From Loxodes magnus (taxonomy: Eukaryota > Ciliophora > Karyorelictea > Loxodida > Loxodidae), in assembly GCA_946699065.1 (NCBI GenBank), contig CAMPDV010000322.1, positions 1 to 64,000 on the forward strand: 64,000 bases of DNA, read 5' to 3'. Below are positions 19,683 to 50,968 of this stretch, piece after piece; positions within the stretch are counted from its first letter, which is position 1, and every line of letters starts with the position of its first letter. The notes under the pieces were generated by a model. That model made no database searches. It saw nothing but the letters and a program-made list of their open reading frames with translations, and was not told the DNA's origin. The position numbers and the translations under genes were made by a program.

Positions 19683-19866
19683 TTAGATTTCGATTTAACT
19701 TTAAGTAAATCAAAAATAGTTAGATTTCGATTTAATTTTAAGTAAATCAAAAATAGTTAGATTTAGATTTAATTTTAAGTAAATCAAAAATAGTTAGATT
19801 TAAATTTAACTTTAAGTAAATCAAAAATAGTTAGATTTAAATTTAATTTTAAGTAAATCAAAAATA

Positions 19867-24400: not shown

Positions 24401-24565
24401 TAAGTAAATCAAAAATAGTTAGATTTAGATTTAATTTTAAGTAAATCAAAAATAGTTAGATTTAAATTTAATTTTAAGTAAATCAAAAATAGTTAGATTT
24501 AAATTTAACTTTAAGTAAATCAAAAATAGTTAGATTTCGATTTAATTTTAAGTAAATCAAAAATA

Positions 24566-25305
24566 GTTAGATTTAAATTTAACTTTAAGTAAGGCAAAGA
24601 TAGTTTGATTTAAATTTAATTTTAAGTAAATCAAAAATAGTTAGATTTCGATTTAATTTTAAGTAAATCAAAAATAGTTAGATTTAGATTTAATTTTAAG
24701 TAAATCAAAAATAGTTAGATTTAAATTTAATTTTAAGTAAATCAAAAATAGTTATGTTTAAATTTACTTTTAAGTAAATCAAAAATAGTTATGTTTAAAT
24801 TTAATTTTAAGTAAATCAAAAATAGTTAGATTTCGATTTAATTTTAAGTAAATCAAAAATAGTTAGATTTAAATTTAATTTTAAGTAAATCAAAAATAGT
24901 TAGATTTAAATTTAATTTTAAGTAAATCAGAAATAGTTAGATTTAAATTTAACTTTAAGTAAGGCAAAGATAGTTTGATTTAAATTTAATTTTAAGTAAA
25001 TCAAAAATAGTTAGATTTCGATTTAATTTTAAGTAAATCAAAAATAGTTAGATTTAGATTTAATTTTAAGTAAATCAAAAATAGTTAGATTTAAATTTAA
25101 TTTTAAGTAAATCAAAAATAGTTATGTTTAAATTTAATTTTAAGTAAATCAAAAATAGTTATGTTTAAATTTAATTTTAAGTAAATCGAAAATAGTTAGA
25201 TTTCGATTTAACTTTAAGTAAATCAAAAATAGTTAGATTTAAATTTAATTTTAAGTAAATCAAAAATAGTTAGATTTAAATTTAATTTTAAGTAAATCAA
25301 AAATA
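24566..25305 (+). repeat. 10-monomer higher-order repeat, two copies (370 bp each)
   Basis: Copies at 24,566-24,935 and 24,936-25,305 share the order AAGGC unit, AAA, CGA, AGA, AAA, GTTATG, GTTATG, CGA, AAA, AAA. The paired GTTATG units at 24,751 and 25,121 are 370 bp apart. A related but diverged series begins near 22,456. A separate seven-monomer series flanks the pair at a 1,036-bp (28-monomer) spacing: it starts with a CGA/G24A unit at 24,307 and 25,343. Confidence 0.85.
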
Positions 25306-26859
25306 GTTAGATTTAAATTTAACTTTAAGTAAATCAAAAATAGTTAGATTTCGATTTAATTTTAAATAAATCAAAAATAGTTAGATTTAAATTTAATTTT
25401 AAGTAAATCAAAAATAGTTAGATTTCGATTTAATTTTAAGTAAATCAAAAATAGTTAGATTTAGATTTAATTTTAAGTAAATCAAAAATAGTTAGATTTA
25501 AATTTAATTTTAAGTAAATCAAAAATAGTTAGATTTAAATTTAACTTTAAGTAAATCAAAAATAGTTAGATTTCGATTTAATTTTAAGTAAATCAAAAAT
25601 AGTTAGATTTAAATTTAACTTTAAGTAAATCAAAAATAGTTAGATTTAAATTTAATTTTAAGTAAATCAAAAATAGTTAGATTTAAATTTAATTTTAAGT
25701 AAATCAAAAATAGTTAGATTTAAATTTAATTTTAAGTAAATCAAAAATAGTTAGATTTAAATTTAACTTTAAGTATATCAAAAATAGTTATGTTTAAATT
25801 TAATTTTAAGTAAATCAAAAATAGTTAGATTTCGATTTAACTTTAAGTAAGGCAAAAATAGTTAGATTTCGATTTAACTTGAAGTAAATTAAAAATAGTT
25901 AGATTTCGATTTAACTTGAAGTAAATCAAAAATAGTTAGATTTAAATTTAATTTTAAGTAAATCAAAAATAGTTAGATTTAAATTTAATTTTAAGTAAAT
26001 TAAAAATAGTTAGATTTAGATTTAATTTTAAGTAAATCAAAAATAGTTAGATTTAAATTTAATTTTAAGTAAATCAAAAATAGTTAGATTTAGATTTAAT
26101 TTTAAGTAAATCAAAGATAGTTTGATTTAAATTTAATTTTAAGTAAATCAAAAATAGTTAGATTTCGATTTAATTTTAAGTAAATCAAAAATAGTTAGAT
26201 TTCGATTTAATTTTAAGTAAATCAAAAATAGTTAGATTTAAATTTAACTTTAAATAAATCAAAAATAGTTAGATTTAAATTTAATTTTAAGTAAATCAAA
26301 AATAGTTAGATTTAAATTTAATTTTAAGTAAATCAAAAATAGTTAGATTTAAATTTAATTTTAAGTAAATCAAAAATAGTTAGATTTAAATTTAATTTTA
26401 AGTAAATCAAAAATAGTTAGATTTAAATTTAATTTTAAGTAAATCAAAAATAGTTAGATTTAAATTTAATTTTAAGTAAATCAAAAATAGTTAGATTTAA
26501 ATTTAATTTTAAGTAAATCAAAAATAGTTATGTTTAAATTTAATTTTAAGTAAATCAAAAATAGTTAGATTTAAATTTAATTTTAAGTAAATCAAAAATA
26601 GTTAGATTTAAATTTAACTTTAAGTAAATCAAAAATAGTTAGATTTCGATTTAATTTTAAGTAAATCAAAAATAGTTAGATTTAAATTTAACTTTAAGTA
26701 AGGCAAAGATAGTTTGATTTAAATTTAATTTTAAGTAAGGCAAAGATAGTTTGATTTAAATTTAATTTTAAGTAAATCAAAAATAGTTAGATTTCGATTT
26801 AATTTTAAGTAAATCAAAAATAGTTAGATTTAAATTTAATTTTAAGTAAATCAAAAATA

Positions 26860-29800
26860 GTTAGATTTAAATTTAATTTTAAGTAAATCAAAAATAGTTA
26901 GATTTAAATTTAATTTTAAGTAAATCAAAAATAGTTAGATTTAAATTTAATTTTAAGTAAATCAAAAATAGTTAGATTTAAATTTAATTTTAAGTAAATC
27001 AAAAATAGTTAGATTTAAATTTAATTTTAAGTAAATCAAAAATAGTTATGTTTAAATTTAATTTTAAGTAAATCAAAAATAGTTAGATTTAAATTTAATT
27101 TTAAGTAAATCAAAAATAGTTAGATTTAAATTTAACTTTAAGTAAATCAAAAATAGTTAGATTTCGATTTAATTTTAAGTAAATCAAAAATAGTTAGATT
27201 TAAATTTAACTTTAAGTAAGGCAAAGATAGTTTGATTTAAATTTAATTTTAAGTAAGGCAAAGATAGTTTGATTTAAATTTAATTTTAAGTAAATCAAAA
27301 ATAGTTAGATTTCGATTTAATTTTAAGTAAATCAAAAATAGTTAGATTTAAATTTAATTTTAAGTAAATCAAAAATAGTTAGATTTAAATTTAATTTTAA
27401 GTAAATCAAAAATAGTTTGATTTCGATTTAACTTTAAGTAAGGCAAAAATAGTTAGATTTCGATTTAACTTGAAGTAAATTAAAAATAGTTAGATTTCGA
27501 TTTAACTTGAAGTAAATCAAAAATAGTTAGATTTAAATTTAATTTTAAGTAAATCCAAAATAGTTAGATTTAAATTTAATTTTAAGTAAATCAAAAATAG
27601 TTAGATTTAAATTTAATTTTAAGTAAATCAAAAATAGTTAGATTTAAATTTAACTTTAAATAAATCAAAAATAGTTAGATTTAAATTTAATTTTAAGTAA
27701 ATCAAAAATAGTTAGATTTAAATTTAATTTTAAGTAAATCAAAAATAGTTAGATTTAAATTTAATTTTAAGTAAATCAAAAATAGTTAGATTTCGATTTA
27801 ATTTTAAGTAAATCAAAAATAGTTAGATTTCGATTTAATTTTAAGTAAATCAAAAATAGTTAGATTTAAATTTAATTTTAAGTAAATCAAAAATAGTTAG
27901 ATTTAAATTTAATTTTAAGTAAATCAAAAATAGTTAGATTTAAATTTAACTTTAAGTAAATCAAAAATAGTTAGATTTCGATTTAATTTTAAGTAAATCA
28001 AAAATAGTTAGATTTAAATTTAATTTTAAGTAAATCAAAAATAGTTAGATTTAAATTTAACTTTAAATAAATCAAAAATAGTTAGATTTAAATTTAATTT
28101 TAAGTAAATCAAAAATAGTTAGATTTAAATTTAATTTTAAGTAAATCAAAAATAGTTAGATTTAAATTTAATTTTAAGTAAATCAAAAATAGTTAGATTT
28201 AAATTTAACTTTAAGTAAATCAAAAATAGTTAGATTTCGATTTAATTTTAAGTAAATCAAAAATAGTTAGATTTAAATTTAATTTTAAGTAAATCAAAAA
28301 TAGTTAGATTTAAATTTAATTTTAAGTAAATCAAAAATAGTTAGATTTAAATTTAATTTTAAGTAAATCAAAAATAGTTATGTTTAAATTTAATTTTAAG
28401 TAAATCAAAAATAGTTAGATTTAAATTTAATTTTAAGTAAATCAAAAATAGTTAGATTTAAATTTAACTTTAAGTAAATCAAAAATAGTTAGATTTCGAT
28501 TTAATTTTAAGTAAATCAAAAATAGTTAGATTTAAATTTAACTTTAAGTAAGGCAAAGATAGTTTGATTTAAATTTAATTTTAAGTAAGGCAAAGATAGT
28601 TTGATTTAAATTTAATTTTAAGTAAATCAAAAATAGTTAGATTTCGATTTAATTTTAAGTAAATCAAAAATAGTTAGATTTAGATTTAATTTTAAGTAAA
28701 TCAAAAATAGTTATGTTTAAATTTACTTTTAAGTAAATCAAAAATAGTTATGTTTAAATTTAATTTTAAGTAAATCAAAAATAGTTAGATTTAAATTTAA
28801 TTTTAAGTAAATCAAAAATAGTTAGATTTAAATTTAATTTTAAGTAAATCAAAAATAGTTAGATTTAAATTTAATTTTAAGTAAATCAAAAATAGTTAGA
28901 TTTAAATTTAATTTTAAGTAAATCAAAAATAGTTAGATTTAAATTTAATTTTAAGTAAATCAAAAATAGTTAGATTTAAATTTAATTTTAAGTAAATCAA
29001 AAATAGTTAGATTTCGATTTAATTTTAAGTAAATCAAAAATAGTAAGATTTAAATTTAATTTTAAGTAAATCAAAAATAGTTAGATTTAAATTTAATTTT
29101 AAGTAAATCAAAAATAGTTAGATTTAAATTTAATTTTAAGTAAATCAAAAATAGTTAGATTTAAATTTAATTTTAAGTAAATCAAAAATAGTTATGTTTA
29201 AATTTAATTTTAAGTAAATCAAAAATAGTTAGATTTAAATTTAATTTTAAGTAAATCAAAAATAGTTAGATTTAAATTTAATTTTAAGTAAATCAAAAAT
29301 AGTTAGATTTCTATTTAATTTTAAGTAAATCAAAAATAGTTAGATTTAAATTTAATTTTAAGTAAATCAAAAATAGTTAGATTTAAATTTAATTTTAAGT
29401 AAATCAAAAATAGTTAGATTTAAATTTAATTTTAAGTAAATCAAAAATAGTTAGATTTAAATTTAATTTTAAGTAAATCAAAAATAGTTATGTTTAAATT
29501 TAATTTTAAGTAAATCAAAAATAGTTAGATTTAAATTTAATTTTAAGTAAATCAAAAATAGTTAGATTTAAATTTAACTTTAAGTAAATCAAAAATAGTT
29601 AGATTTCGATTTAATTTTAAGTAAATCAAAAATAGTTAGATTTAAATTTAACTTTAAGTAAGGCAAAGATAGTTTGATTTAAATTTAATTTTAAGTAAGG
29701 CAAAGATTGTTTGATTTAAATTTAATTTTAAGTAAATCAAAAATAGTTAGATTTAAATTTAATTTTAAATAAATCAAAAATAGTTAGATTTCGATTTAAT

Positions 29801-31335
29801 TTTAAGTAAATCAAAAATAGTTAGATTTAAATTTAATTTTAAGTAAATCAAAAATAGTTATGTTTAAATTTAATTTTAAGTAAATCAAAAATAGTTAGAT
29901 TTCGATTTAATTTTAAGTAAATCAAAAATAGTTAGATTTAGATTTAATTTTAAGTAAATCAAAAATAGTTAGATTTAAATTTAATTTTAAGTAAATCAAA
30001 AATAGTTAGATTTAAATTTAATTTTAAGTAAATCAAAAATAGTTAGATTTAGATTTAATTTTAAGTAAATCAAAAATAGTTAGATTAAATTTAATTTTAA
30101 GTAAATCAAAAATAGTTAGATTTAAATTTAATTTTAAGTAAATCAAAAATAGTTAGATTTAAATTTAATTTTAAGTAAATCAAAAATAGTTAGATTTAAA
30201 TTTAATTTTAAGTAAATCAAAAATAGTTATGTTTAAATTTAATTTTAAGTAAATCAAAAATAGTTAGATTTAAATTTAATTTTAAGTAAATCAAAAATAG
30301 TTAGATTTAAATTTAATTTTAAGTAAATCAAAAATAGTTAGATTTAAATTTAATTTTAAGTAAATCAAAAATAGTTAGATTTAAATTTAATTTTAAATAA
30401 ATCAAAAATAGTTAGATTTAAATTTAATTTTAAGTAAATCAAAAATAGTTAGATTTAAATTTAATTTTAAGTAAATCAAAAAAAGTTAGATTTCGATTTA
30501 ATTTTAAGTAAATCAAAAATAGTTAGATTTCGATTTAATTTTAAGTAAATCAAAAATACTTAGATTTAGATTTAATTTTAAGTAAATCAAAAATAGTTAG
30601 ATTTAAATTTAATTTTAAGTAAATCAAAAATAGTTAGATTTAAATTTAATTTTAAATAAATCAAAAATAGTTAGATTTCGATTTAATTTTAAGTAAATCA
30701 AAAATAGTTAGATTTAGATTTAATTTTAAGTAAATCGAAAATAGTTAGATTTCGATTTAACTTTAAGTAAATCAAAAATAGTTAGATTTAAATTTAATTT
30801 TAAGTAAATCAAAAATAGTTAGATTTAAATTTAATTTTAAGTAAATCAAAAATAGTTAGATTTAAATTTAATTTTAAATAAATCAAAAATAGTTAGATTT
30901 AAATTTAATTTTAAGTAAATCAAAAATAGTTAGATTTCGATTTAATTTTAAGTAAATCAAAAATAGTTAGATTTAAATTTAATTTTAAGTAAATCAAAAA
31001 TAGTTAGATTTAAATTTAATTTTAAGTAAATCAAAAATAGTTAGATTTAAATTTAAATTTAAGTAAATCAAAAATAGTTAGATTTCGATTTAATTTTAAG
31101 TAAATCAAAAATAGTTAGATTTAAATTTAATTTTAAGTAAATCAAAAATAGTTAGATTTAAATTTAATTTTAAATAAGGCAAAGATAGTTTGATTTAAAT
31201 TTAACTTTAAGTAAGGCAAAAATAGTTATATTTCGATTTAACTTTAAGTAAATCAAAAATAGTTAGATTTCAATTTAATTTTAATCAAATCAAAAATAGT
31301 TAGATTTCGATTTAACTTTAAGTAAATCAAAAATA
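26860..31335 (+). repeat. Copy 1 of a 4.48-kb tandem segmental duplication
   Basis: This 4,476-bp block (121 monomers, one with a single missing base near 30,085) is followed directly by its duplicate. Rare landmarks recur at fixed offsets. The offset is 4,476 bp at the left (GTTATG at 27,045 to 31,521; AAGGC at 27,219 to 31,695). It is 4,217 bp for the rest: AAGGC 28,551 to 32,768; a unique TAGTAAG 29,041 to 33,258; ATCG 30,735 to 34,952; TTAATCAAAT 31,281 to 35,498. The 259-bp change means seven monomers, about 27,375-27,640, are present here and absent from copy 2. Those seven include GTTTG/CGA, two T21G CGA units and a unique ATCC unit. Confidence 0.95.
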
Positions 31336-34300
31336 GTTAGATTTAAATTTAATTTTAAGTAAATCAAAAATAGTTAGATTTAAATTTAATTTTAAGTAAA
31401 TCAAAAATAGTTAGATTTAAATTTAATTTTAAGTAAATCAAAAATAGTTAGATTTAAATTTAATTTTAAGTAAATCAAAAATAGTTAGATTTAAATTTAA
31501 TTTTAAGTAAATCAAAAATAGTTATGTTTAAATTTAATTTTAAGTAAATCAAAAATAGTTAGATTTAAATTTAATTTTAAGTAAATCAAAAATAGTTAGA
31601 TTTAAATTTAACTTTAAGTAAATCAAAAATAGTTAGATTTCGATTTAATTTTAAGTAAATCAAAAATAGTTAGATTTAAATTTAACTTTAAGTAAGGCAA
31701 AGATAGTTTGATTTAAATTTAATTTTAAGTAAGGCAAAGATAGTTTGATTTAAATTTAATTTTAAGTAAATCAAAAATAGTTAGATTTCGATTTAATTTT
31801 AAGTAAATCAAAAATAGTTAGATTTAAATTTAATTTTAAGTAAATCAAAAATAGTTAGATTTAAATTTAACTTTAAATAAATCAAAAATAGTTAGATTTA
31901 AATTTAATTTTAAGTAAATCAAAAATAGTTAGATTTAAATTTAATTTTAAGTAAATCAAAAATAGTTAGATTTAAATTTAATTTTAAGTAAATCAAAAAT
32001 AGTTAGATTTCGATTTAATTTTAAGTAAATCAAAAATAGTTAGATTTCGATTTAATTTTAAGTAAATCAAAAATAGTTAGATTTAAATTTAATTTTAAGT
32101 AAATCAAAAATAGTTAGATTTAAATTTAATTTTAAGTAAATCAAAAATAGTTAGATTTAAATTTAACTTTAAGTAAATCAAAAATAGTTAGATTTCGATT
32201 TAATTTTAAGTAAATCAAAAATAGTTAGATTTAAATTTAATTTTAAGTAAATCAAAAATAGTTAGATTTAAATTTAACTTTAAATAAATCAAAAATAGTT
32301 AGATTTAAATTTAATTTTAAGTAAATCAAAAATAGTTAGATTTAAATTTAATTTTAAGTAAATCAAAAATAGTTAGATTTAAATTTAATTTTAAGTAAAT
32401 CAAAAATAGTTAGATTTAAATTTAACTTTAAGTAAATCAAAAATAGTTAGATTTCGATTTAATTTTAAGTAAATCAAAAATAGTTAGATTTAAATTTAAT
32501 TTTAAGTAAATCAAAAATAGTTAGATTTAAATTTAATTTTAAGTAAATCAAAAATAGTTAGATTTAAATTTAATTTTAAGTAAATCAAAAATAGTTATGT
32601 TTAAATTTAATTTTAAGTAAATCAAAAATAGTTAGATTTAAATTTAATTTTAAGTAAATCAAAAATAGTTAGATTTAAATTTAACTTTAAGTAAATCAAA
32701 AATAGTTAGATTTCGATTTAATTTTAAGTAAATCAAAAATAGTTAGATTTAAATTTAACTTTAAGTAAGGCAAAGATAGTTTGATTTAAATTTAATTTTA
32801 AGTAAGGCAAAGATAGTTTGATTTAAATTTAATTTTAAGTAAATCAAAAATAGTTAGATTTCGATTTAATTTTAAGTAAATCAAAAATAGTTAGATTTAG
32901 ATTTAATTTTAAGTAAATCAAAAATAGTTATGTTTAAATTTACTTTTAAGTAAATCAAAAATAGTTATGTTTAAATTTAATTTTAAGTAAATCAAAAATA
33001 GTTAGATTTAAATTTAATTTTAAGTAAATCAAAAATAGTTAGATTTAAATTTAATTTTAAGTAAATCAAAAATAGTTAGATTTAAATTTAATTTTAAGTA
33101 AATCAAAAATAGTTAGATTTAAATTTAATTTTAAGTAAATCAAAAATAGTTAGATTTAAATTTAATTTTAAGTAAATCAAAAATAGTTAGATTTAAATTT
33201 AATTTTAAGTAAATCAAAAATAGTTAGATTTCGATTTAATTTTAAGTAAATCAAAAATAGTAAGATTTAAATTTAATTTTAAGTAAATCAAAAATAGTTA
33301 GATTTAAATTTAATTTTAAGTAAATCAAAAATAGTTAGATTTAAATTTAATTTTAAGTAAATCAAAAATAGTTAGATTTAAATTTAATTTTAAGTAAATC
33401 AAAAATAGTTATGTTTAAATTTAATTTTAAGTAAATCAAAAATAGTTAGATTTAAATTTAATTTTAAGTAAATCAAAAATAGTTAGATTTAAATTTAATT
33501 TTAAGTAAATCAAAAATAGTTAGATTTCTATTTAATTTTAAGTAAATCAAAAATAGTTAGATTTAAATTTAATTTTAAGTAAATCAAAAATAGTTAGATT
33601 TAAATTTAATTTTAAGTAAATCAAAAATAGTTAGATTTAAATTTAATTTTAAGTAAATCAAAAATAGTTAGATTTAAATTTAATTTTAAGTAAATCAAAA
33701 ATAGTTATGTTTAAATTTAATTTTAAGTAAATCAAAAATAGTTAGATTTAAATTTAATTTTAAGTAAATCAAAAATAGTTAGATTTAAATTTAACTTTAA
33801 GTAAATCAAAAATAGTTAGATTTCGATTTAATTTTAAGTAAATCAAAAATAGTTAGATTTAAATTTAACTTTAAGTAAGGCAAAGATAGTTTGATTTAAA
33901 TTTAATTTTAAGTAAGGCAAAGATTGTTTGATTTAAATTTAATTTTAAGTAAATCAAAAATAGTTAGATTTAAATTTAATTTTAAATAAATCAAAAATAG
34001 TTAGATTTCGATTTAATTTTAAGTAAATCAAAAATAGTTAGATTTAAATTTAATTTTAAGTAAATCAAAAATAGTTATGTTTAAATTTAATTTTAAGTAA
34101 ATCAAAAATAGTTAGATTTCGATTTAATTTTAAGTAAATCAAAAATAGTTAGATTTAGATTTAATTTTAAGTAAATCAAAAATAGTTAGATTTAAATTTA
34201 ATTTTAAGTAAATCAAAAATAGTTAGATTTAAATTTAATTTTAAGTAAATCAAAAATAGTTAGATTTAGATTTAATTTTAAGTAAATCAAAAATAGTTAG

Positions 34301-35552
34301 ATTAAATTTAATTTTAAGTAAATCAAAAATAGTTAGATTTAAATTTAATTTTAAGTAAATCAAAAATAGTTAGATTTAAATTTAATTTTAAGTAAATCAA
34401 AAATAGTTAGATTTAAATTTAATTTTAAGTAAATCAAAAATAGTTATGTTTAAATTTAATTTTAAGTAAATCAAAAATAGTTAGATTTAAATTTAATTTT
34501 AAGTAAATCAAAAATAGTTAGATTTAAATTTAATTTTAAGTAAATCAAAAATAGTTAGATTTAAATTTAATTTTAAGTAAATCAAAAATAGTTAGATTTA
34601 AATTTAATTTTAAATAAATCAAAAATAGTTAGATTTAAATTTAATTTTAAGTAAATCAAAAATAGTTAGATTTAAATTTAATTTTAAGTAAATCAAAAAA
34701 AGTTAGATTTCGATTTAATTTTAAGTAAATCAAAAATAGTTAGATTTCGATTTAATTTTAAGTAAATCAAAAATACTTAGATTTAGATTTAATTTTAAGT
34801 AAATCAAAAATAGTTAGATTTAAATTTAATTTTAAGTAAATCAAAAATAGTTAGATTTAAATTTAATTTTAAATAAATCAAAAATAGTTAGATTTCGATT
34901 TAATTTTAAGTAAATCAAAAATAGTTAGATTTAGATTTAATTTTAAGTAAATCGAAAATAGTTAGATTTCGATTTAACTTTAAGTAAATCAAAAATAGTT
35001 AGATTTAAATTTAATTTTAAGTAAATCAAAAATAGTTAGATTTAAATTTAATTTTAAGTAAATCAAAAATAGTTAGATTTAAATTTAATTTTAAATAAAT
35101 CAAAAATAGTTAGATTTAAATTTAATTTTAAGTAAATCAAAAATAGTTAGATTTCGATTTAATTTTAAGTAAATCAAAAATAGTTAGATTTAAATTTAAT
35201 TTTAAGTAAATCAAAAATAGTTAGATTTAAATTTAATTTTAAGTAAATCAAAAATAGTTAGATTTAAATTTAAATTTAAGTAAATCAAAAATAGTTAGAT
35301 TTCGATTTAATTTTAAGTAAATCAAAAATAGTTAGATTTAAATTTAATTTTAAGTAAATCAAGAATAGTTAGATTTAAATTTAATTTTAAATAAGGCAAA
35401 GATAGTTTGATTTAAATTTAACTTTAAGTAAGGCAAAAATAGTTATATTTCGATTTAACTTTAAGTAAATCAAAAATAGTTAGATTTCAATTTAATTTTA
35501 ATCAAATCAAAAATAGTTAGATTTCGATTTAACTTTAAGTAAATCAAAAATA
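31336..35552 (+). repeat. Copy 2 of the tandem segmental duplication (7 monomers shorter)
   Basis: This 4,217-bp block (114 monomers, one a base short near 34,302) begins where copy 1 ends. It even repeats copy 1's private one-base deletion and odd units (TACTTAG, AAAAAAAG, TTCTATTT, TTATATTT, TTCAATTT). The only clear single-base difference I noticed is an A to G at about 35,363 in copy 2. Such near identity implies a recent event. At 35,553 the next unit is CGA plus T18C/T21G with C30T, and the array changes character. Confidence 0.95.
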
Positions 35553-36989
35553 GTTAGATTTCGATTTAACTTGAAGTAAATTAAAAATAGTTAGATTTCG
35601 ATTTAATTTTAAGTAAATCAAAAATAGTTAGATTTCGATTCAATTTTAAGTAAATCAAAAATAGTTAAATTTCGATTCAATTTTAAGTAAATCAAAAATA
35701 GTTAGATTTCGATTTAATTTTAAGTAAATCAAAAATAGTTAGATTTAAATTTAATTTTAAGTAAATCAAAAATAGTTAGATTTCGATTTAATTTTAAGTA
35801 AATCAAAAATAGTTATGTTTAAATTTAATTTTAAGTAAATCAAAAATAGTTAGATTTCGATTTAATTTTAAGTAAATCAAAAATAGTTAGATTTCGATTT
35901 AACTTTAAGTAAATCAAAAATAGTTAGATTTCGATTTAACTTTAAGTAAATTAAAAATAGTTAGATTTCGATTTAACTTTAAGTAAATCAAAAATAGTTA
36001 GATTTCGATTTAACTTTAAGTAAATCGAAAATAGTTAGATTTCGATTTAACTTTAAGTAAGGCAAAAATAGTTAGATTTAAATTAGATTTTAAGTAAATC
36101 AAAAATAGTTAGATTTCGATTTAATTTTAAGTAAATCAAAAATAGTTAGGTTTAAATTTAATTTTAAGTAAATCAAAAATAGTTAGATTTCGATTTAACT
36201 TTAAGTAAATTAAAAATAGTTAGATTTAAATTTAATTTTAAGTAAATCAAAAATAGTTAGATTTAAATTTAACTTTAAGTAAATCAAAAATAGTTAGGTT
36301 TAAATTTAATTTTAAGTAAATCAAAAATAGTTAGATTTCGATTTAACTTGAAGTAAATCAAAAATAGTTAGATTTAAATTTAATTTTAAGTAAATCAAAA
36401 ATAGTTAGATTTAAATTTAATTTTAAGTAAATCAAAAATAGTTAGGTTTAAATTTAATTTTAAGTAAATCAAAAATAGTTATGTTTAAATTTAATTTTAA
36501 ATAAATCAAAAATAGTTAGATTTAAATTTAATTTTAAGTAAATCAAAAATAGTTAGATTTCGATTTAATTTTAAGTAAATCAAAAATAGTTAGATTTCGA
36601 TTTAACTTTAAGTAAATCAAAAATAGTTAGATTTCGATTTAATATTAAGTAAATAAAAAATAGTTAGATTTAAATTTAACTTTAAGTAAATCAAAAATAG
36701 TTAGATTTCGATTTAACTTTAAGTAAATCAAAAATAGTTAGATTTCGATTTAACTTTAAGTAAATCAAAAATAGTTAGATTTCGATTTAACTTTAAGTAA
36801 ATTAAAAATAGTTAGATTTCGATTCAATTTTAAATAAATCAAAAATAGTTAGATTTAAATTTAATTTTAAGTAAATCAAAAATAGTTAGATTTAAATTTA
36901 ATTTTAAGTAAATCAAAAATAGTTAGATTTAAATTTAATTTTAAGTAAATCAAAAATAGTTAGATTTAAAGTTAATTTTAAGTAAATCA

Positions 36990-39900
36990 AAAATAGTTAG
37001 ATTTCGATTTAACTTTAAGTAAATCAAAAATAGTTAGATTTCGATTTAACTTGAAGTAAATTAAAAATAGTTAGATTTCGATTTAACTTTAAGTAAATCA
37101 AAAATAGTTTGATTTCGATTTAACTTTAAGTAAATCAAAAATAGTTAGATTTCGATTTAATATTAAGTAAATCAAAAATAGTTAGATTTAAATTTAACTT
37201 TAAGTAAATCAAAAATAGTTAGATTTCGATTTAACTTTAAGTAAATCAAAAATAGTTAGATTTCGATTTAACTTTAAGTAAATCAAAAATAGTTTGATTT
37301 AAATTTAACTTGAATTAAATCAAAAATAGTTAGATTTCGATTTAACTTTAAGTAAATCAAAAATAGTTAGATTTCGATTCAATTTTAAGTAAATTAAAAA
37401 TAGTTAGATTTAAATTTAACTTTAAGTAAATCAAAAATAGTTAGATTTCGATTTAATTTTAAGTAAATCAAAAATAGTTAGATTTAAATTTAATTTTAAG
37501 TAAATCAAAAATAGTTAGATTTAAATTTAATTTTAAGTAAATCAAAAATAGTTAGATTTAAATTTAATTTTAAGTAAATCAAAAATAGTTAGATTTAAAT
37601 TTAATTTTAAGTAAATCAAAAATAGTTAGATTTCGATTTAACTTTAAGTAAATCAAAAATAGTTTGATTTAAATTTAATTTTAAGTAAATCAAAAATAGT
37701 TAGATTTCGATTTAACTTTAAGTAAATCAAAAATAGTTAGATTTAAATTTAATTTTAAGTAAATCAAAAATAGTTAGATTTAAATTTAATTTTAAGTAAA
37801 TTAAAAATAGTTAGATTTCGATTTAACTTTAAGTAAATCAAAAATAGTTAGATTTCGATTTAATTTTAAGTAAATCAAAATAGTTAGATTTAAATTTAAT
37901 TTTAAGTAAATCAAAAATAGTTAGATTTCGATTTAATTTTAAGTAAATCAAAAATAGTTAGATTTAAATTTACTTTTAAGTAAATCAAAAATAGTTAGAT
38001 TTAAATTTAATTTTAAGTAAATCAAAAATAGTTAGATTTAAATTTAACTTTAAGTAAATCAAAAATAGTTAGATTTCGATTTAATTTTAAGTAAATCAAA
38101 AATAGTTAGATTTAAATTTAATTTTAAGTAAATCAAAAATAGTTAGATTTAAATTTAACTTTAAGTAAATCAAAATAGTTAGATTTAAATTTAATTTTAA
38201 GTAAATCAAAAATAGTTAGATTTAAATTTAATTTTAAGTAAATCAAAAATAGTTAGATTTAAATTTAATTTTAAGTAAATCAAAAATAGTTAGGTTTAAA
38301 TTTAATTTTAAGTAAATCAAAAAGAGTTAGATTTCGATTTAACTTGAAGTAAATCAAAAATAGTTAGGTTTAAATTTAACTTTAAGTAAATCAAAAATAG
38401 TTAGATTTAAATTTAATTTTAAGTAAATCAAAAATAGTTAGATTTAAATTTAATTTTAAGTAAATCAAAAATAGTTAGGTTTAAATTTAATTTTAAGTAA
38501 ATCAAAAATAGTTAGATTTCGATTTAACTTTAAGTAAATCAAAAATAGTTAGATTTAAATTTAATTTTAAGTAAATCAAAAATAGTTAGATTTAAATTTA
38601 ACTTTAAGTAAATCAAAAATAGTTAGATTTAAATTTAATTTTAAGTAAATCAAAAATAGTTAGATTTAAATTTAATTTTAAGTAAATCAAAAATAGTTAG
38701 GTTTAAATTTAATTTTAAGTAAATCAAAAATAGTTAGATTTCGATTTAACTTTAAGTAAATCAAAAATAGTTAGATTTCGATTTAACTTTAAGTAAATCA
38801 AAAATAGTTTGATTTCGATTTAACTTTAAGTAAATCAAAAATAGTTAGATTTAAATTTAATTTTAAGTAAATCAAAAATAGTTAGATTTAGATTTAATTT
38901 TAAGTAAATCAAAAATAGTTAGATTTAAATTTAATTTTAAGTAAATCAAAAATAGTTAGATTTAAATTTAATTTTAAGTAAATCAAAAATAGTTAGATTT
39001 AAATTTAATTTTAAGTAAATCAAAAATAGTTAGATTTAAATTTAATTTTAAGTAAATCAAAAATAGTTAGATTTAAATTTAACTTTAAGTAAATCAAAAA
39101 TAGTTTGATTTCGATTTAACTTTAAGTAAATCAAAAATAGTTTGATTTAAATTTAACTTTAAGTAAATCAAAAATAGTTAGATTTAAATTTTATTTTAAG
39201 TAAATCAAAAATAGTTAGATTTAAATTTAATTTTAAGTAAATCAAAAATAGTTAGATTTAGATTTAACTTTAAGTAAATCAAAAATAGTTAGATTTAAAT
39301 TTAATTTTAAGTAAATCAAAAATAGTTAGATTTCGATTTAATTTTAAGTAAATCAAAAATAGTTAGATTTCGATTTAACTTTAAGTAAATCAAAAATAGT
39401 TAGATTTCGATTTAACTTGAAGTAAATTAAAAATAGTTAGATTTCGATTTAACTTTAAGTAAATCAAAAATAGTTTGATTTCGATTTAACTTTAAGTAAA
39501 TCAAAAATAGTTAGATTTCGATTTAATATTAAGTAAATCAAAAATAGTTAGATTTAAATTTAACTTTAAGTAAATCAAAAATAGTTAGATTTCGATTTAA
39601 CTTTAAGTAAATCAAAAATAGTTAGATTTCGATTTAACTTTAAGTAAATCAAAAATAGTTAGATTTCGATTTAACTTTAAGTAAATTAAAAATAGTTAGA
39701 TTTCGATTCAATTTTAAGTAAATTAAAAATAGTTAGATTTAAATTTAATTTTAAGTAAATCAAAAATAGTTAGATTTAGATTTAATTTTAAGTAAATCAA
39801 AAATAGTTAGATTTAAATTTAACTTTAAGTAAATCAAAAATAGTTAGATTTAAATTTAATTTTAAGTAAATCAAAAATAGTTAGATTTAAATTTAATTTT

Positions 39901-41250
39901 AAGTAAATCAAAAATAGTTAGATTTCGATTCAATTTTAAGTAAATCAAAAATAGTTAAATTTCGATTCAATTTTAAGTAAATCAAAAATAGTTAGATTTA
40001 AAGTTAATTTTAAGTAAATCAAAAATAGTTTGATTTAAATTTAATTTTAAGTAAATCAAAATAGTTAGATTTAAATTTAACTTTAAGTAAATCAAAAATA
40101 GTTAGATTTAAATTTAATTTTAAGTAAATCAAAAATAGTTAGATTTAAATTTAATTTTAAGTAAATCAAAAATAGTTAGATTTAAATTTAATTTTAAGTA
40201 AATCAAAAATAGTTAGATTTAAATTTAATTTTAAGTAAATCAAAAATAGTTAGATTTCGATTTAACTTTAAGTAAATCAAAAATAGTTAGATTTAAATTT
40301 AACTTTAAGTAAATCAAAAATAGTTAGATTTAAATTTAATTTTAAGTAAATCAAAAATAGTTAGATTTCGATTTAATTTTAAGTAAATCAAAAATAGTTA
40401 GATTTAAATTTAACTTTAAGTAAATCAAAAATAGTTAGATTTAAATTTAATTTTAAGTAAATCAAAAATAGTTAGATTTCGATTTTACTTTAAGTAAATC
40501 AAAAATAGTTAGATTTCGATTTAACTTTAAGTAAATAAAAATAGTTAGATTTAAATTTAATTTTAAGTAAATTAAAAATAGTTAGATTTCGATTTAACTT
40601 TAAGTAAATCAAAAATAGTTTGATTTCGATTTAACTTTAAGTAAATCAAAAATAGTTAGATTTCGATTTAATATTAAGTAAATCAAAAATAGTTAGATTT
40701 AAATTTAACTTTAAGTAAATCAAAAATAGTTAGATTTCGATTTAACTTTAAGTAAATCAAAAATAGTTAGATTTCGATTTAACTTTAAGTAAATCAAAAA
40801 TAGTTAGATTTCGATTTAACTTTAAGTAAATTAAAAATAGTTAGATTTCGATTCAATTTTAAGTAAATCAAAAATAGTTAGATTTAAAGTTAATTTTAAG
40901 TAAATCAAAAATAGTTTGATTTAAATTTAATTTTAAGTAAATCAAAATAGTTAGATTTAAATTTAACTTTAAGTAAATCAAAAATAGTTAGATTTAAATT
41001 TAATTTTAAGTAAATCAAAAATAGTTAGATTTAAATTTAATTTTAAGTAAATCAAAAATAGTTAGATTTCGATTCAATTTTAAGTAAATCAAAAATAGTT
41101 AAATTTCGATTCAATTTTAAGTAAATCAAAAATAGTTAGATTTAAAGTTAATTTTAAGTAAATCAAAAATAGTTTGATTTAAATTTAATTTTAAGTAAAT
41201 CAAAATAGTTAGATTTAAATTTAACTTTAAGTAAATCAAAAATAGTTAGA
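36990..41250. repeat. Repeated CGA / T19A / AAAGTTAA cassettes
   Basis: A series reading CGA plus T18C, GTTTG CGA, CGA with T19A (AATATTAAG), AAA with T18C, then two or three CGA plus T18C units occurs near 37,080-37,300, 39,440-39,710 and 40,570-40,860. Near it a T13G unit (AAAGTTAA), followed by a GTTTG unit ending in a one-base-shorter A run, starts at 39,991, 40,877 and 41,135. These spacings are 886 and 258 bp, that is 24 and 7 monomers after allowing for the known deletions. The copies are not all adjacent, so edges are approximate. Confidence 0.75.
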
Positions 41251-42502
41251 TTTAAATTTAATTTTAAGTAAATCAAAAATAGTTAGATTTCGATTTAATT
41301 TTAAGTTAATCTAAAATAGTTAGATTTCGATTTAACTTTAAGTAAATCAAAAATAGTTAGATTTAAATTTAATTTTAAGTAAATAAAAAATAGTTAGATT
41401 TCGATTTAACTTTAAGTAAATCAAAAATAGTTTGATTTAAATTTAATTTTAAGTAAATCAAAAATAGTTAGATTTAAATTTAATTTTAAGTAAATCAAAA
41501 ATAGTTAGATTTCGATTTAACTTTAAGTAAATCAAAAATAGTTAGATTTCGATTTAACTTTAAGTAAATCAAAAATAGTTAGATTTCGATTTAACTTTAA
41601 GTAAGGCAAAAATAGTTAGATTTCGATTCAATTTTAAGTAAATCAAAAATAGTTAGATTTAAATTTAATTTTAAGTAAATCAAAAATAGTTATGTTTAAA
41701 TTTAATTTTAAGTAAATCAAAAATAGTTAGATTTAAATTTAATTTTAAGTAAATCAAAAATAGTTAGATTTAAATTTAATTTTAAGTAAATCAAAAATAG
41801 TTAGATTTCGATTTAACTTTAAGTAAATCAAAAATAGTTAGATTTCGATTTAATTTTAAGTAAATCAAAAATAGTTAGATTTCGATTCAATTTTAAGTAA
41901 ATCAAAAATAGTTAGATTTCGATTTAACTTTAAGTAAATCAAAAATTGTTAGATTTCGATTTAACTTTAAGTAAATCAAAAATAGTTAGATTTAAATTTA
42001 ATTTTAAGTAAATCAAAAAAAGTTTGATTTAAATTTAATTTTAAGTAAATCAAAAATAGTTAGATTTCGATTTAATTTTAAGTAAATCAAAAATAGTTAG
42101 ATTTAAATTTAACTTTAAGTAAATCAAAAATAGTTAGATTTCGATTTAACTTTAAGTAAATCAAAAATAGTTAGATTTCGATTTAACTTTAAGTAAGGCA
42201 AAAATAGTTTGATTTCGATTTAACTTTAAGTAAATCAAAAATAGTTAGATTTCGATTTTACTTTAAGTAAATCAAAAATAGTTAGATTTCGATTTAACTT
42301 TAAGTAAATCAAAAATAGTTAGATTTAAATTTAACTTTAAGTAAGGCAAAAATAGTTAGATTTCGATTTAATTTTAAGTAAATCAAAAATAGTTAGATTT
42401 CGATTTAACTTTAAGTAAATAGAAAATAGTTAGATTTAAATTTAATTTTAAGTAAATCAAAAATAGTTAGATTTCGATTTAACTTTAAGTAAATAGAAAA
42501 TA

Positions 42503-43979
42503 GTTAGATTTAAATTTAATTTTAAGTAAATCAAAAATAGTTAGATTTCGATTTAATTTTAAGTAAATCAAAAATAGTTAGATTTAAAGTTAATTTTAAG
42601 TAAATCAAAAATAGTTAGATTTAATTTAATTTAAAGTAAATCAAAAATAGTTTGATTTCGATTTAACTTTAAGTAAATCAAAAATAGTTAGATTTAATGT
42701 TAATTTTAAGTAAATCAAAAATAGTTAGATTTAAATTTAACTTTAAGTAAATAAAAAATAGTTAGATTTAAATTTAATTTTAAGTAAATCAAAAATAGTT
42801 AGATTTAGATTTAATTTTAAGTAAATCGAAAATAGTTAGATTTCGATTTAACTTTAAGTAAATCAAAAATAGTTAGATTTCGATTTAACTTTAAGTAAAT
42901 CAAAAATAGTTAGATTTCGATTTAACTTGAAGTAAATCAAAAATAGTTAGATTTAAATTTAATTTTAAGTAAATCAAAAATAGTTAGATTTCGATTTAAC
43001 TTTAAGTAAATCAAAAATAGTTAGATTTCGATTTAATTTTAAGTAAATCAAAATAGTTAGATTTAAATTTAATTTTAAGTAAATCAAAAATAGTTAGATT
43101 TCGATTTAATTTTAAGTAAATCAAAAATAGTTAGATTTAAATTTACTTTTAAGTAAATCAAAAATAGTTAGATTTAAATTTACTTTTAAGTAAATCAAAA
43201 ATAGTTAGATTTAAATTTAATTTTAAGTAAATCAAAAATAGTTAGATTTAAATTTAACTTTAAGTAAATCAAAAATAGTTAGATTTCGATTTAACTTTAA
43301 GTAAATCAAAAATAGTTAGATTTTGATTTAACTTTAAGTAAATCAAAAATAGTTAGATTTAAATTTAATTTTAAGTAAATCAAAAATAGTTAGATTTAAA
43401 GTTAATTTTAAGTAAATTAAAAATAGTTTGATTTAAATTTAATTTTAAGTAAATCAAAAATAGTTAGATTTCGATTTAACTTTAAGTAAATCAAAAATAG
43501 TTAGATTTAATGTTAATTTTAAGTAAATCAAAAATAGTTAGATTTAAATTTAATTTTAAGTAAATCAAAAATAGTTAGATTTCGATTTAATTTTAAGTAA
43601 ATCAAAAATAGTTAGATTTAAAGTTAATTTTAAGTAAATCAAAAATAGTTAGATTTAATTTAATTTAAAGTAAATCAAAAATAGTTTGATTTCGATTTAA
43701 CTTTAAGTAAATCAAAAATAGTTAGATTTAATGTTAATTTTAAGTAAATCAAAAATAGTTAGATTTAAATTTAACTTTAAGTAAATAAAAAATAGTTAGA
43801 TTTAAATTTAATTTTAAGTAAATCAAAAATAGTTAGATTTAGATTTAATTTTAAGTAAATCGAAAATAGTTAGATTTCGATTTAACTTTAAGTAAATCAA
43901 AAATAGTTAGATTTCGATTTAACTTTAAGTAAATCAAAAATAGTTAGATTTCGATTTAACTTGAAGTAAATCAAAAATA
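42503..43979 (+). repeat. 28-monomer spaced duplication marked by an odd short monomer
   Basis: About twelve monomers starting at 42,503 recur from 43,537, an offset of 1,034 bp (28 monomers minus two single-base deletions). The order is AAA, CGA, AAAGTTAA, a distinctive 36-bp unit reading GATTTAATTTAATTTAAAG, GTTTG CGA, AATGTTAA, AAA with C30A, AAA, AGA with A31G, CGA, CGA, CGA with T21G. The 36-bp unit lies at 42,614 and 43,648. A second series, AAA/T18C, CGA, TGA with T18C, AAA, T13G with C30T, near 43,240 is likewise repeated near 43,980. Confidence 0.85.
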
Positions 43980-46900
43980 GTTAGATTTAAATTTAACTTT
44001 AAGTAAATCAAAAATAGTTAGATTTCGATTTAACTTTAAGTAAATCAAAAATAGTTAGATTTTGATTTAACTTTAAGTAAATCAAAAATAGTTAGATTTA
44101 AATTTAATTTTAAGTAAATCAAAAATAGTTAGATTTTAAGTTAATTTTAAGTAAATTAAAAATAGTTTGATTTAAATTTAATTTTAAGTAAATCAAAAAT
44201 AGTTAGATTTCGATTTAACTTTAAGTAAATCAAAAATAGTTAGATTTCGATTTAACTTGAAGTAAATTAAAAATAGTTAGATTTCGATTTAACTTTAAGT
44301 AAATTAAAAATAGTTAGATTTCGATTCAATTTTAAGTAAATCAAAAATAGTTAAATTTCGATTCAATTTTAAGTAAATCAAAAATAGTTAGATTTAAATT
44401 TAATTTTAAGTAAATCAAAAATAGTTAGATTTAAATTTTTCTTGAATTAAATCAAAAATAGTTAGATTTCGATTTAACTTTAAGTAAATTAAAAATAGTT
44501 AGATTTAAATTTAATTTTAAGTAAATCAAAAATAGTTAGATTTCGATTCAATTTTAAGTAAATTAAAAATAGTTAGATTTCGATTCAATTTTAAGTAAAT
44601 CAAAAATAGTTAGATTTAAATTTAACTTTAAGTAAATCAAAAATAGTTAGATTTAAATTTAATTTTAAGTAAATCAAAAATAGTTAGATTTCGATTTAAC
44701 TTTAAGTAAATCGAAAATAGTTAGTTTTCGATTTAACTTTAAGTAAATCAAAAATAGTTAGATTTAGATTTAATTTTAAGTAAATCAAAAATAGTTAGAT
44801 TCCGATTTAACTTTAAGTAAGGCAAAAATAGTTTGATTTCGATTTAACTTTAAGTAAATCAAAAATAGTTAGATTTCGATTCAATTTTAAGTAAATCAAA
44901 AATAGTTAGATTTCGATTCAATTTTAAGTAAATTAAAAATAGTTAGATTTCGATTTAACTTTAAGTAAATCAAAAATAGTTAGATTTCGATTAAACTTGA
45001 AGTAAATTAAAAATAGTTAGATTTCGATTTAACTTTAAGTAAATTAAAAATAGTTAGATTTCGATTCAATTTTAAGTAAATCAAAAATAGTTAAATTTCG
45101 ATTCAATTTTAAGTAAATCAAAAATAGTTAGATTTAAATTTAATTTTAAGTAAATCAAAAATAGTTAGATTTAAATTTAATTTTAAGTAAATCAAAAATA
45201 GTTAGATTTAAATTTAATTTTAAGTAAATCAAAAATAGTTAGATTTAAATTTAACTTTAAGTAAATCAAAAATAGTTAGATTTAAATTTAATTTTAAGTA
45301 AATCAAAAATAGTTAGATTTAAATTTAATTTTAAGTAAATGAAAATAGTTAGATTTCGATTTAACTTTAAGTAAATCGAAAATAGTTAGTTTTCGATTTA
45401 ACTTTAAGTAAGGCAAAAATAGTTAGATTTAGATTTAATTTTAAGTAAATCAAAAATAGTTAGATTTCGATTTAACTTTAAGTAAGGCAAAAATAGTTTG
45501 ATTTCGATTTAACTTTAAGTAAATCAAAAATAGTTAGATTTCGATTCAATTTTAAGTAAATCAAAAATAGTTAGATTTCGATTCAATTTTAAGTAAATTA
45601 AAAATAGTTAGATTTCGATTTAACTTTAAGTAAATTAAAAATAGTTAGATTTCGATTCAATTTTAAGTAAATTAAAAATAGTTAGATTTCGATTTAACTT
45701 TAAGTAAATTAAAAATAGTTAGATTTCGATTCAATTTAAAGTAAATCAAAAATAGTTAAATTTCGATTCAATTTTAAGTAAATCAAAAATAGTTAGATTT
45801 AAATTTAATTTTAAGTAAATCAAAAATAGTTAGATTTCGATTTAATTTTAAGTAAATCAAAAATAGTTAGATTTAAATTTAATTTTAAGTAAATCAAAAA
45901 TAGTTAGATTTAAATTTAACTTTAAGTAAATCAAAAATAGTTAGATTTAAATTTAATTTTAAGTAAATCAAAAATAGTTAGATTTAAATTTAATTTTAAG
46001 TAAATCGAAAATAGTTAGATTTCGATTTAACTTTAAGTAAATCAAAAATAGTTAGATTTAAATTTAATTTTAAGTAAATTAAAAATAGTTAGATTTCGAT
46101 TCAATTTTAAGTAAATTAAAAATAGTTAGATTTAAATTTAATTTTAAGTAAATCAAAAATAGTTAGATTTAGATTTAATTTTAAGTAAATTAAAAATAGT
46201 TAGATTTCGATTTAACTTTAAGTAAGGCAAAAATAGTTAGATTTAAATTTAACTTTAAGTAAATCAAAAATAGTTAGATTTCGATTTTACTTTAAGTAAA
46301 TCAAAAATAGTTAGATTTAAATTTAACTTTAAGTAAATCAAAAATAGTTAGATTTCGATTCAATTTTAAGTAAATTAAAAATAGTTAGATTTAAATTTAA
46401 CTTTAAGTAAATCAAAAATAGTTAGATTTCGATTTAACTTTAAGTAAATCAAAAATAGTTAGATTTCGATTCAATTTTAAGTAAATTAAATATAGTTAGA
46501 TTTCGATTTAACTTTAAGTAAATCAAAAATAGTTTGATTTCGATTTAACTTTAAGTAAATCAAAAATAGTTATGTTTAAATTTAATTTTAAGTAAATCAA
46601 AAATAGTTATGTTTAAATTTAATTTTAAGTAAATCAAAAATAGTTAGATTTCGATTTAATTTTAAGTAAATCAAAAATAGTTTGATTTCGATTTAACTTT
46701 AAGTAAATCGAAATAGTTAGATTTAAATTTAATTTTAAGTAAATCAAAAATAGTTAGATTTCGATTTAATTTTAAGTAAATCAAAAATAGTTAGGTTTAA
46801 ATTTAACTTTAAGTAAATCAAAAATAGTTAGATTTAAATTTAATTTTAAGTAAATTAAAAATAGTTAGATTTCGATTCAATTTTAAGTAAATTAAAAATA

Positions 46901-49414: not shown

Positions 49415-50968
49415 GTTAGATTTAAATTTAATTTTAAGTAAATCAAAAATAGTTAGATTTAGATTTAATTTTAAGTAAATCAAAAATAGTTAGATTTAAA
49501 TTTAATTTTAAGTAAATCAAAAATAGTTAGATTTCGAGTTAATTTTAAGTAAATCAAAAATAGTTAGATTTAAATTTAACTTTAAGTAAATTAAAAATAG
49601 TTAGATTTCGATTTAATATAAAAGAAAACAAAAATAGTTAGATTTCGATTTAACTTTAAGTAAATTAAAAATAGTTAGATTTAAATTTAATTTTAAGTAA
49701 ATCAAAAATAGTTAGATTTCGATTTAACTTTAAGTAAATCAAAAATAGTTAGATTTAAATTTAACTTTAAGTAAATCAAAAATAGTTAGATTTAAATTTA
49801 ATTTTAAGTAAATCAAAAATAGTTAGATTTAAATTTAATTTTAAGTAAATCAAAAATAGTTAGATTTCGATTTAACTTTAAGTAAATCAAAAATAGTTAG
49901 ATTTCGATTTAACTTTAAGTAAATCGAAAATAGTTAGATTTCGATTTAACTTTAAGTAAATCAAAAATAGTTAGATTTCGATTTAACTTTAAGTAAATCA
50001 AAAATAGTTAGATTTCGATTTAACTTTAAGTAAATCAAAAATAGTTAGATTTAAATTCAATTTTAAGTAAATCAAAAATAGTTAGATTTCGATTTAACTT
50101 TAAGTAAATCAAAAATAGTTAGATTTCGATTTAACTTTAAGTAAATCAAAAATAGTTAGATTTCGATTTAATTTTAAGTAAATCAAAAATAGTTAGATTT
50201 AAATTTAACTTTAAGTAAGGCAAAGATAGTTTGATTTAAATTTAATTTTAAGTAAATTAAAAATAGTTAGATTTAAATTTAATTTTAAGTAAATCAAAAA
50301 TAGTTAGATTTAGATTTAATTTTAAGTAAATCAAAAATAGTTAGATTTAAATTTAATTTTAAGTAAATCAAAAATAGTTAGATTTCGAGTTAATTTTAAG
50401 TAAATCAAAAATAGTTAGATTTAAATTTAACTTTAAGTAAATTAAAAATAGTTAGATTTCGATTTAATATAAAAGAAAACAAAAATAGTTAGATTTCGAT
50501 TTAACTTTAAGTAAATTAAAAATAGTTAGATTTAAATTTAATTTTAAGTAAATCAAAAATAGTTAGATTTCGATTTAACTTTAAGTAAATCAAAAATAGT
50601 TAGATTTAAATTTAACTTTAAGTAAATCAAAAATAGTTAGATTTAAATTTAATTTTAAGTAAATCAAAAATAGTTAGATTTAAATTTAATTTTAAGTAAA
50701 TCAAAAATAGTTAGATTTCGATTTAACTTTAAGTAAATCAAAAATAGTTAGATTTCGATTTAACTTTAAGTAAATCGAAAATAGTTAGATTTCGATTTAA
50801 CTTTAAGTAAATCAAAAATAGTTAGATTTCGATTTAACTTTAAGTAAATCAAAAATAGTTAGATTTCGATTTAACTTTAAGTAAATCAAAAATAGTTAGA
50901 TTTAAATTCAATTTTAAGTAAATCAAAAATAGTTAGATTTCGATTTAACTTTAAGTAAATCAAAAATA
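49415..50968 (+). repeat. 23-monomer higher-order repeat with a strongly diverged unit
   Basis: Copy 1 is 49,415-50,265 (851 bp). Copy 2 begins at 50,266 and follows it for about 19 monomers. Landmarks exactly 851 bp apart are the CGAGTT unit (49,535/50,386), the diverged TATAAAAG unit (49,600/50,451) and the AAATTCAA unit (near 50,056/50,907). After that, AAGGC units at 50,218 and 50,995 are only 777 bp apart, so copy 2 lacks two monomers. The unit length of 23 monomers is the same as in the repeat at 17,205-18,906, but the variants involved are different. Confidence 0.92.
49600..49636 (+). repeat. Most divergent monomer, with TATAAAAG
   Basis: The monomer keeps the normal 37-bp length and a CGA core, but positions 19-30 are rewritten to read ATAAAAGAAAAC, with several substitutions at once where other units have one to four. 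An identical unit lies at 50,451-50,487 as part of the 23-monomer duplication. It contains TATAAAAG, which resembles a TATA box, but nothing around it suggests a transcript. Confidence 0.85.

What the first reader, a model, noticed from the sequence alone, without database searches (positions are those of the whole stretch)
35500..35620. Sharp boundary between satellite subfamilies at 35,552/35,553
Left of this point AAA-core units with AATTTTAAG predominate. Right of it CGA-core units with T18C do. The switch happens within one or two monomers, exactly at the right edge of the 4.2-kb duplicate. Gradual mutation would give a gradient; an abrupt edge points to a rearrangement that joined two separately homogenised arrays, or an expansion front. 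In centromeric arrays such edges can separate the active core from older flanks.
Basis: partly seen in the sequence, partly recalled or inferred. Interest (0 to 1): 0.7.

Follow-up and report, generated by a model that had tools for sequence, protein, structure and literature searches.

The report
Mosaic edge in a ciliate satellite
In a long stretch of 37-base repeats, probably from a ciliate genome, a more uniform stretch gives way to a more varied one through a patchwork zone rather than a clean cut, which ordinary local duplication and exchange of repeats can explain.

Summary
The window is one unbroken 37-bp satellite array (contig C322; genome size, tubulin frames and COX1 suggest the Loxodes magnus macronuclear assembly). 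A composition change near the given point is real: the joint best split is 35,405, four monomers left of 35,552/35,553; CGA core goes from 15% to 59%, T18C from 10% to 54%, far beyond shuffles. In windows of 3 kb or more it is the largest or near-largest step in 294 kb. It is not a clean edge. Each marker alone fits a 5-6 kb-wide sigmoid better than a sharp step; only the joint CGA+C18 unit fits a sharp step. From 35.4 to 50.7 kb the array is a clumped mixture of both types. The duplicate's right edge is 35,552, but both copies (26,860-31,335; 31,336-35,552) end with the same four right-type monomers, so most simply the boundary predates the duplication. Best reading: the mixed margin of a locally expanding, homogenised domain. 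Caveats: reads were not available, and the left domain reaches the assembler's 96% overlap threshold out of register. A centromere role is untested.

The parts
1..64000 (+). 37-bp satellite array, consensus GTTAGATTTAAATTTAATTTTAAGTAAATCAAAAATA, 1,731 monomers by cyclic alignment
   Evidence: (TRF: period 37, 1730.3 copies, 93% match)
1..35404 (+). AAA-rich, more uniform domain: CGA 144 of 957, C18 100 of 957
   Evidence: local pairwise identity 0.93-0.97
26860..31335 (+). tandem duplicate, copy 1 (121 monomers, 4,476 bp)
   Evidence: identical at lag 121 (monomers 726-739), then at lag 114 (746-846) but for one base
31336..35552 (+). tandem duplicate, copy 2 (114 monomers, 4,217 bp), abutting copy 1; one base differs (35,363)
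27341..27599 (+). 7-monomer block in copy 1 that is missing from copy 2 (placement can slide by one monomer)
31188..31335 (+). four monomers that score as right-type at the end of copy 1, now inside the AAA-rich domain
   Evidence: the monomer at 31,225 is right-diagnostic (0 in the left, 48 in the right training set)
35405..35552 (+). the same four monomers at the end of copy 2; the best-fitting composition change begins here
   Evidence: two words from 35,385-35,515 occur exactly only here and in copy 1 in the 706-Mb genome
35405..50709 (+). mosaic transition zone: CGA 203 of 414, C18 193 of 414, mixture of both flanking types
37477..39324 (+). largest left-type block (50 monomers) inside the transition zone
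   Evidence: HMM; median mismatches 92 against the left domain, 151 against 50-100 kb
36071..36551 (+). left-type block of 13 monomers inside the transition zone
   Evidence: median mismatches 28 against the left domain, 46 against 50-100 kb
50710..64000 (+). CGA-rich, more varied domain: CGA 252 of 360, C18 226 of 360; goes on beyond the window

Best explanation
This is the margin of a locally expanding, homogenised domain inside a long 37-bp satellite array. Shown: the left 35 kb is more uniform and AAA-rich, the right is more varied and CGA/C18-rich, and between them lies a zone with the marker association and clumping of a mixture of the two. Shown: a 4.2-4.5 kb tandem duplication ends at the margin, and each copy ends with the same four right-type monomers; most simply the margin existed before that duplication. 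Inferred: unequal sister-chromatid exchange or replication-based duplication multiplies segments of the left domain, pushing it outward, and the same out-of-register exchanges shuffle blocks of both types across the margin. The steepest point of the change, about 35.4 kb, is then the present outer end of the last amplified segment.
For: Change point at 35,405, the only split kept in the window at the strictest penalty and one of five kept over 294 kb. The transition zone fits a 35:65 mixture of left and right compositions and is clumped (block-mean variance 2.13 times shuffles, 0 of 1,000 reached it; left domain 1.24, P 0.049; 50.7-64 kb 1.37, P 0.059), with HMM blocks of 13-50 monomers. CGA-C18 phi is 0.38 in the zone against 0.13 and 0.11 on either side. 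Left-diagnostic monomers thin out up to about 50 kb, with two later ones at 57,961 and 60,957. Nested layers: AGA core 95 of 580 before 21,458 against 19 of 377 after (p 4e-8), T27 37 of 580 against 1 of 377 (p 2e-7). Abutting tandem duplication, one base different. Near-exact repeats of 10-75 monomers occur elsewhere along the array, so the process is general.
Against: With a logistic trend in the model, the best added step for CGA and for 'either' is a fall at 4,589, not a rise at 35 kb; only C18 (35,886) and both (35,442) put it here. A smooth trend with short-range correlation gives as large an 80-monomer step in 13% of 400 simulations for CGA+C18, 3.8% for C18 and 0.5% for CGA. The 'right-type' blocks of the zone are no closer to the right domain than to the left by mismatch count (medians 63 against 61, and 73 against 69); the right domain's own diversity leaves that test little power. 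Right-diagnostic monomers also occur at 25 places left of 35,405, some at 34,665-34,961, so the four at the end of the duplicate could be an island and the margin could lie at 35,553. Near-exact repeats are not concentrated on the left (5 of 197 start in 0-20 kb, 20 of 197 in 20-40 kb), although that count required six non-consensus monomers and so is biased against uniform regions. No left-type block of the zone is a near-exact copy of a left segment: best 65 mismatches over 50 monomers. Direction of spread is inferred, and the left domain is cut by the contig end.
Confidence: 0.6

Rival explanations
1. Assembly effect: the left domain is so uniform that the assembler could not keep reads in register, so the order, length and duplicate there are partly artificial, and the visible edge marks where the array becomes resolvable.
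For: The Loxodes magnus paper used Falcon with a 96% identity overlap threshold at about 20-30x and says that misassembly of low-complexity repeats likely caused the size difference between its assemblies (PMC11441545, sections 8 and 25). In the left domain 16.2% (5 kb) and 17.9% (10 kb) of sampled wrong-register overlaps reach 96%, against 0-0.11% in five stretches to the right. The contig begins inside this domain. No second contig carries the two junction words exactly.
Against: Sampled left segments match segments at 50-96 kb at most 92.8% over 5 kb, so a false overlap straight across should fail; the change should sit inside reads (or a chimera). Mis-tiling shuffles order but does not by itself create a composition change or variants nearly confined to the left (T27, AGA+T16).
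Confidence: 0.25
2. Clean join of two separately homogenised arrays by one rearrangement at 35,552/35,553.
For: The joint CGA+C18 unit prefers a sharp step at 35.4 kb; a duplication edge lies 148 bp away; for CGA alone 35,553 loses only 2.0 log units.
Against: Types interleave to the right for about 4 kb at least; single markers prefer a broad transition; pairwise identity declines gradually; right-type monomers sit at the ends of both copies of the duplicate; all four AAA/CGA x T18/C18 combinations are common.
Confidence: 0.08
3. Smooth gradient: composition drifts along the array by mutation and very local exchange, and 35.4 kb is only its steepest chance point.
For: A sigmoid with w = 5-6 kb beats the sharp step for CGA, C18 and 'either' by 5-31 log units; the best extra step over a logistic trend is elsewhere for CGA and 'either'; smooth trends give the joint-unit step in 13% of simulations.
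Against: Marker association inside the zone fits admixture, not independence, and the zone is clumped; a smooth trend seldom gives the CGA step (2 of 400).
Confidence: 0.07

Closest known systems
Layered alpha-satellite arrays of primate centromeres (PMC11062924; passages seen)
   Same: Blocks of high internal identity next to more diverged layers of the same satellite
   Different: 37-bp monomers, and TRF (periods up to 500) reports no longer unit in the window; no kinetochore evidence; layers here differ by a few per cent; probably a ciliate genome
Low-complexity tandem repeats of Loxodes magnus (PMC11441545; sections 8 and 25 and search passages seen)
   Same: Very likely this genome: 706 Mbp macronuclear assembly, 231 Mbp of low-complexity tandem repeats
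   Different: The parts seen describe no 37-bp family ('37 bp' and 'satellite' have 0 occurrences in the main text) and no internal structure of any array

Membership tests
Satellite DNA (long head-to-tail tandem array) | one short unit repeated head to tail over tens of kilobases | tested here: met
   Period 37, 1,730 copies in the window; 7,952 monomers over 294 kb of the contig
Layered or expanding satellite array | stretches of one satellite with stepwise different composition and internal identity | tested here: met
   Splits at 21,458, 35,405 and 46,975 or 50,710 depending on penalty and span; identity about 0.96 to 0.91, though the identity falls gradually
Layered or expanding satellite array | recent segmental duplications concentrated in the youngest layer | tested here: inconclusive
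   The longest one ends at the margin, but the 197 near-exact repeats are spread along the array
Clean junction of two homogenised arrays | one breakpoint with pure types on each side | tested here: not met
   Interleaved blocks, broad single-marker transition
Centromeric satellite (active core) | binds the centromeric histone / kinetochore | not testable with these tools
   No chromatin data; 'centromer' has 0 occurrences in the main text of PMC11441545

The most novel reading that the evidence does not exclude
The AAA-rich end of this array is an active, germline-transmitted expansion core of a karyorelict ciliate, possibly its centromere, with a visible mixed margin and a duplication caught extending it.
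Probability: 0.06. Interest if true: 0.6.

Novelty: new member of a known kind. Interest (0 to 1): 0.25.

Why it matters
It gives a worked, base-level example, probably in a ciliate, of how two variants of one satellite meet: by block admixture rather than a clean cut, with the likely order of one duplication relative to the margin readable from shared monomers. It also shows a practical hazard: the uniform end of the array is where a 96% overlap threshold cannot keep reads in register.

Tried and rejected
Clean two-array junction: rejected by interleaving and sigmoid fits. Discrete subfamilies: rejected, all four marker combinations are common. Exact coincidence of change point and duplicate edge: disfavoured, not excluded (35,553 loses 2.0, 4.2 and 4.6 log units for CGA, C18 and both). 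With copy 2 removed the best split moves to the matching place in copy 1 (31,188-31,225). A simple single-lag 4.2-kb duplicate: replaced by an abutting tandem duplication with a 7-monomer difference. Left-type blocks as recent copies of left segments: searched without gaps, none near-exact. The same test on the right-type blocks did not tell the domains apart. The junction on a second contig: two exact words, none. Papers: 0 papers hold both 'Loxodes' and 'satellite DNA'; four hold 'Loxodes' and 'centromere', listing only seen, except PMC13273997, of which passages were seen; searches for a 37-bp satellite in ciliates or with centromere showed, in the listings, nothing that I could tie to this repeat; two further literature searches (listings) and one on satellite boundaries (listing) were used for background only.

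Full report
What the window is. TRF reports a 37-bp tandem array over the whole 64,000 bases. A cyclic alignment cut it into 1,731 monomers. The window is the first 64 kb of contig C322 (344,956 bp) of a 705,730,643-base genome in 7,843 contigs. With the loci that could be fetched I read C322:1-294,000, which is this satellite throughout (7,952 monomers), and 334,001-344,000, which is the same satellite in the opposite orientation. 294,001-334,000 and the last 956 bases were not read.

Organism. COX1 in this genome matches chains of entries 7w5z and 8b6h best among solved structures; I recall these as Tetrahymena, the output does not name the organism. The tubulin rows printed all have in-frame TAA, many also TAG or TGA. 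The Loxodes magnus paper gives 706 Mbp for the macronuclear assembly, 4 mitochondrial contigs in it and NCBI table 27 with UGA as stop or W (PMC11441545); that table 27 reads TAA and TAG as Q is recalled. The identification is an inference from size, code and COX1; no record name was seen.

Is the observation there? Yes in substance. The best single split for the CGA core is 35,442, for C18 35,405, for both 35,442; support intervals of 2 log units are 34,702-35,553, 35,294-35,886 and 35,294-35,442. Gains of 187, 203 and 197 log units compare with maxima of 10.6, 9.1 and 11.5 in 1,000 monomer shuffles and 45.5, 43.1 and 55.3 in 1,000 shuffles of 20-monomer blocks. Over 294 kb, 35,405 is one of five splits kept at the stricter penalty (others 106,123, 133,738, 205,335, 224,270). 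With windows of 80 monomers or more the step near 35 kb has no rival, except for the joint unit at 80 monomers, where 104,422 is close (0.30 against 0.31); with windows of 10-20 monomers there are 10 to 402 places as steep, depending on marker and window. Immediately left, 8 of 38 monomers are CGA and 1 of 38 C18; immediately right 23 of 38 and 17 of 38.

How sharp? Sigmoids of fixed width were fitted to the window and to 0-100 kb. For CGA, C18 and 'either', w = 5-6 kb centred at 38-40 kb is best and a sharp step (grid of positions) is worse by 5 to 31 log units. For monomers that are both CGA and C18 the sharp step at 35.4 kb is best, by 1.3-3.8 units over w = 3 kb. A two-state HMM using scores trained outside the zone (left below 27 kb, right 47-110 kb; scores halved) gives R 35,368 (19 monomers), L 36,071 (13), R 36,552 (25), L 37,477 (50), then R from 39,325, at two switching rates; at a higher rate more blocks appear up to 43.6 kb, and one 3-monomer R block at 27,415. 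A least-squares split of the same score falls at 39,325, with 35,368 and 35,405 tenth and eleventh. Added to a logistic trend, the best extra step is at 35,442 for both and 35,886 for C18, but at 4,589, downward, for CGA and 'either'. Simulated smooth trends with short-range correlation reach the observed maximal 80-monomer step in 0.5% (CGA), 3.8% (C18) and 13% (both) of 400 runs each; the trend parameters were set by hand. So a step is moderately supported on top of a broad transition.

What the transition is. From 35,405 to 50,709 the counts of CGA/C18, CGA/not C18, other/C18, other/not C18 are 134, 69, 59, 152. A mixture of the left and right compositions with 65% right expects 128.5, 80.8, 54.7, 150.0 (chi2 2.31, p 0.32); independence expects 94.6, 108.4, 98.4, 112.6 (chi2 60). 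The all-site score is clumped (variance of 10-monomer means 2.13 times shuffles, 0 of 1,000 as high; left domain 1.24, P 0.049; 50.7-64 kb 1.37, P 0.059; 64-100 kb 1.29, P 0.023). This is what exchange of blocks between two types would produce. Ungapped comparison places the left-type blocks with the left domain (median mismatches 28 against 46, 92 against 151, 34 against 61 for left and 50-100 kb), but does not place the right-type blocks with the right (61 against 63, 69 against 73); the right domain is so varied that this half of the test has little power.

The duplicate. Monomers 726-739 equal 847-860 at lag 121, and 746-846 equal 860-960 at lag 114 with one base different. Copy 1 is therefore 26,860-31,335 and copy 2 31,336-35,552, abutting exactly, differing by a 7-monomer block near 27,341-27,599. 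In five shuffles that keep regional composition the lowest mismatch count per 25 monomers was 11 to 16; the duplicate's best 25 have 0. Both copies end with the same four monomers (31,188-31,335; 35,405-35,552), all scoring right-type; one, at 31,225 and 35,442, is found 0 times in the left training set and 48 times in the right. Most simply, the composition change was there before the duplication, whose breakpoint fell 148 bp beyond it. The alternative, a right-type island at the end of the duplicated segment with the margin at 35,553, is not excluded: right-diagnostic monomers occur at 25 places left of 35,405. Two words from 35,385-35,515 occur exactly in the genome only here and in copy 1. 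Duplications as such are common: 197 near-exact repeats of at least 10 monomers (at least six non-consensus, lag under 1,200 monomers), the next longest 75 monomers at 254,139-259,689.

Age and layering. Pairwise identity in 80-monomer windows (self-pairs included) is 0.947-0.971 over 0-20 kb, 0.931-0.953 over 20-39 kb and 0.905-0.922 from 43 kb on, with no outstanding jump at 35.4 kb. AGA core and T27 fall sharply near 21.5 kb (p 4e-8 and 2e-7). The commonest T27 monomer occurs 35 times in the genome: 25 on C322 left of 26 kb, one at 67.5 kb and nine on contig C4634. The 35.4-kb step is thus one of several nested layers, which suggests repeated local expansion on the left, cut off by the contig end.

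Assembly. The paper assembled about 20-30x HiFi reads with Falcon at a 96% identity threshold (section 25). In the left domain 16.2% of sampled wrong-register 5-kb overlaps and 17.9% of 10-kb overlaps reach 96%; in five stretches to the right 0 to 0.11% do. Order and length of the left domain, and the duplicate, need reads. Sampled overlap of left with 50-96 kb sequence peaks at 92.8%, so the composition change itself is unlikely to come from a false overlap.

Verdict. The centromere suggestion is untested.

Noticed in passing
contig C322:334,001-344,000 (L033): The satellite runs in the opposite orientation near the contig's right end; listed plus-strand matches reach 324.2 kb, so an inversion point or fold-back lies between about 324 and 334 kb.
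   Followed up: partly
window 21,458: A second, weaker composition step inside the left domain: AGA core and T27 units drop sharply.
   Followed up: partly
contig C4634:25,115-28,740: A left-domain monomer (T27) recurs nine times on this other contig with different spacing, so it does not look like a simple overlap of C322's start; the contig could not be fetched.
   Followed up: partly
contigs C714:18,590-21,919 and C322:321,431-324,202: Matches to the query have nearly the same spacing on both contigs, as expected of an allele or overlapping contig.
   Followed up: no
contigs C5505 (25,467 bp) and C5958: Each carries two COX1 copies in opposite orientation about 10 kb apart, a palindrome-like mitochondrial contig or a fold-back artefact.
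   Followed up: no
contig C441:147,748-175,110: Tubulin matches repeat nine times at 3,342-bp spacing on one strand, a tandem tubulin array.
   Followed up: no
L029, C322:254,139-259,689: A 75-monomer abutting tandem duplication elsewhere in the array, similar in kind to the one at the margin.
   Followed up: no
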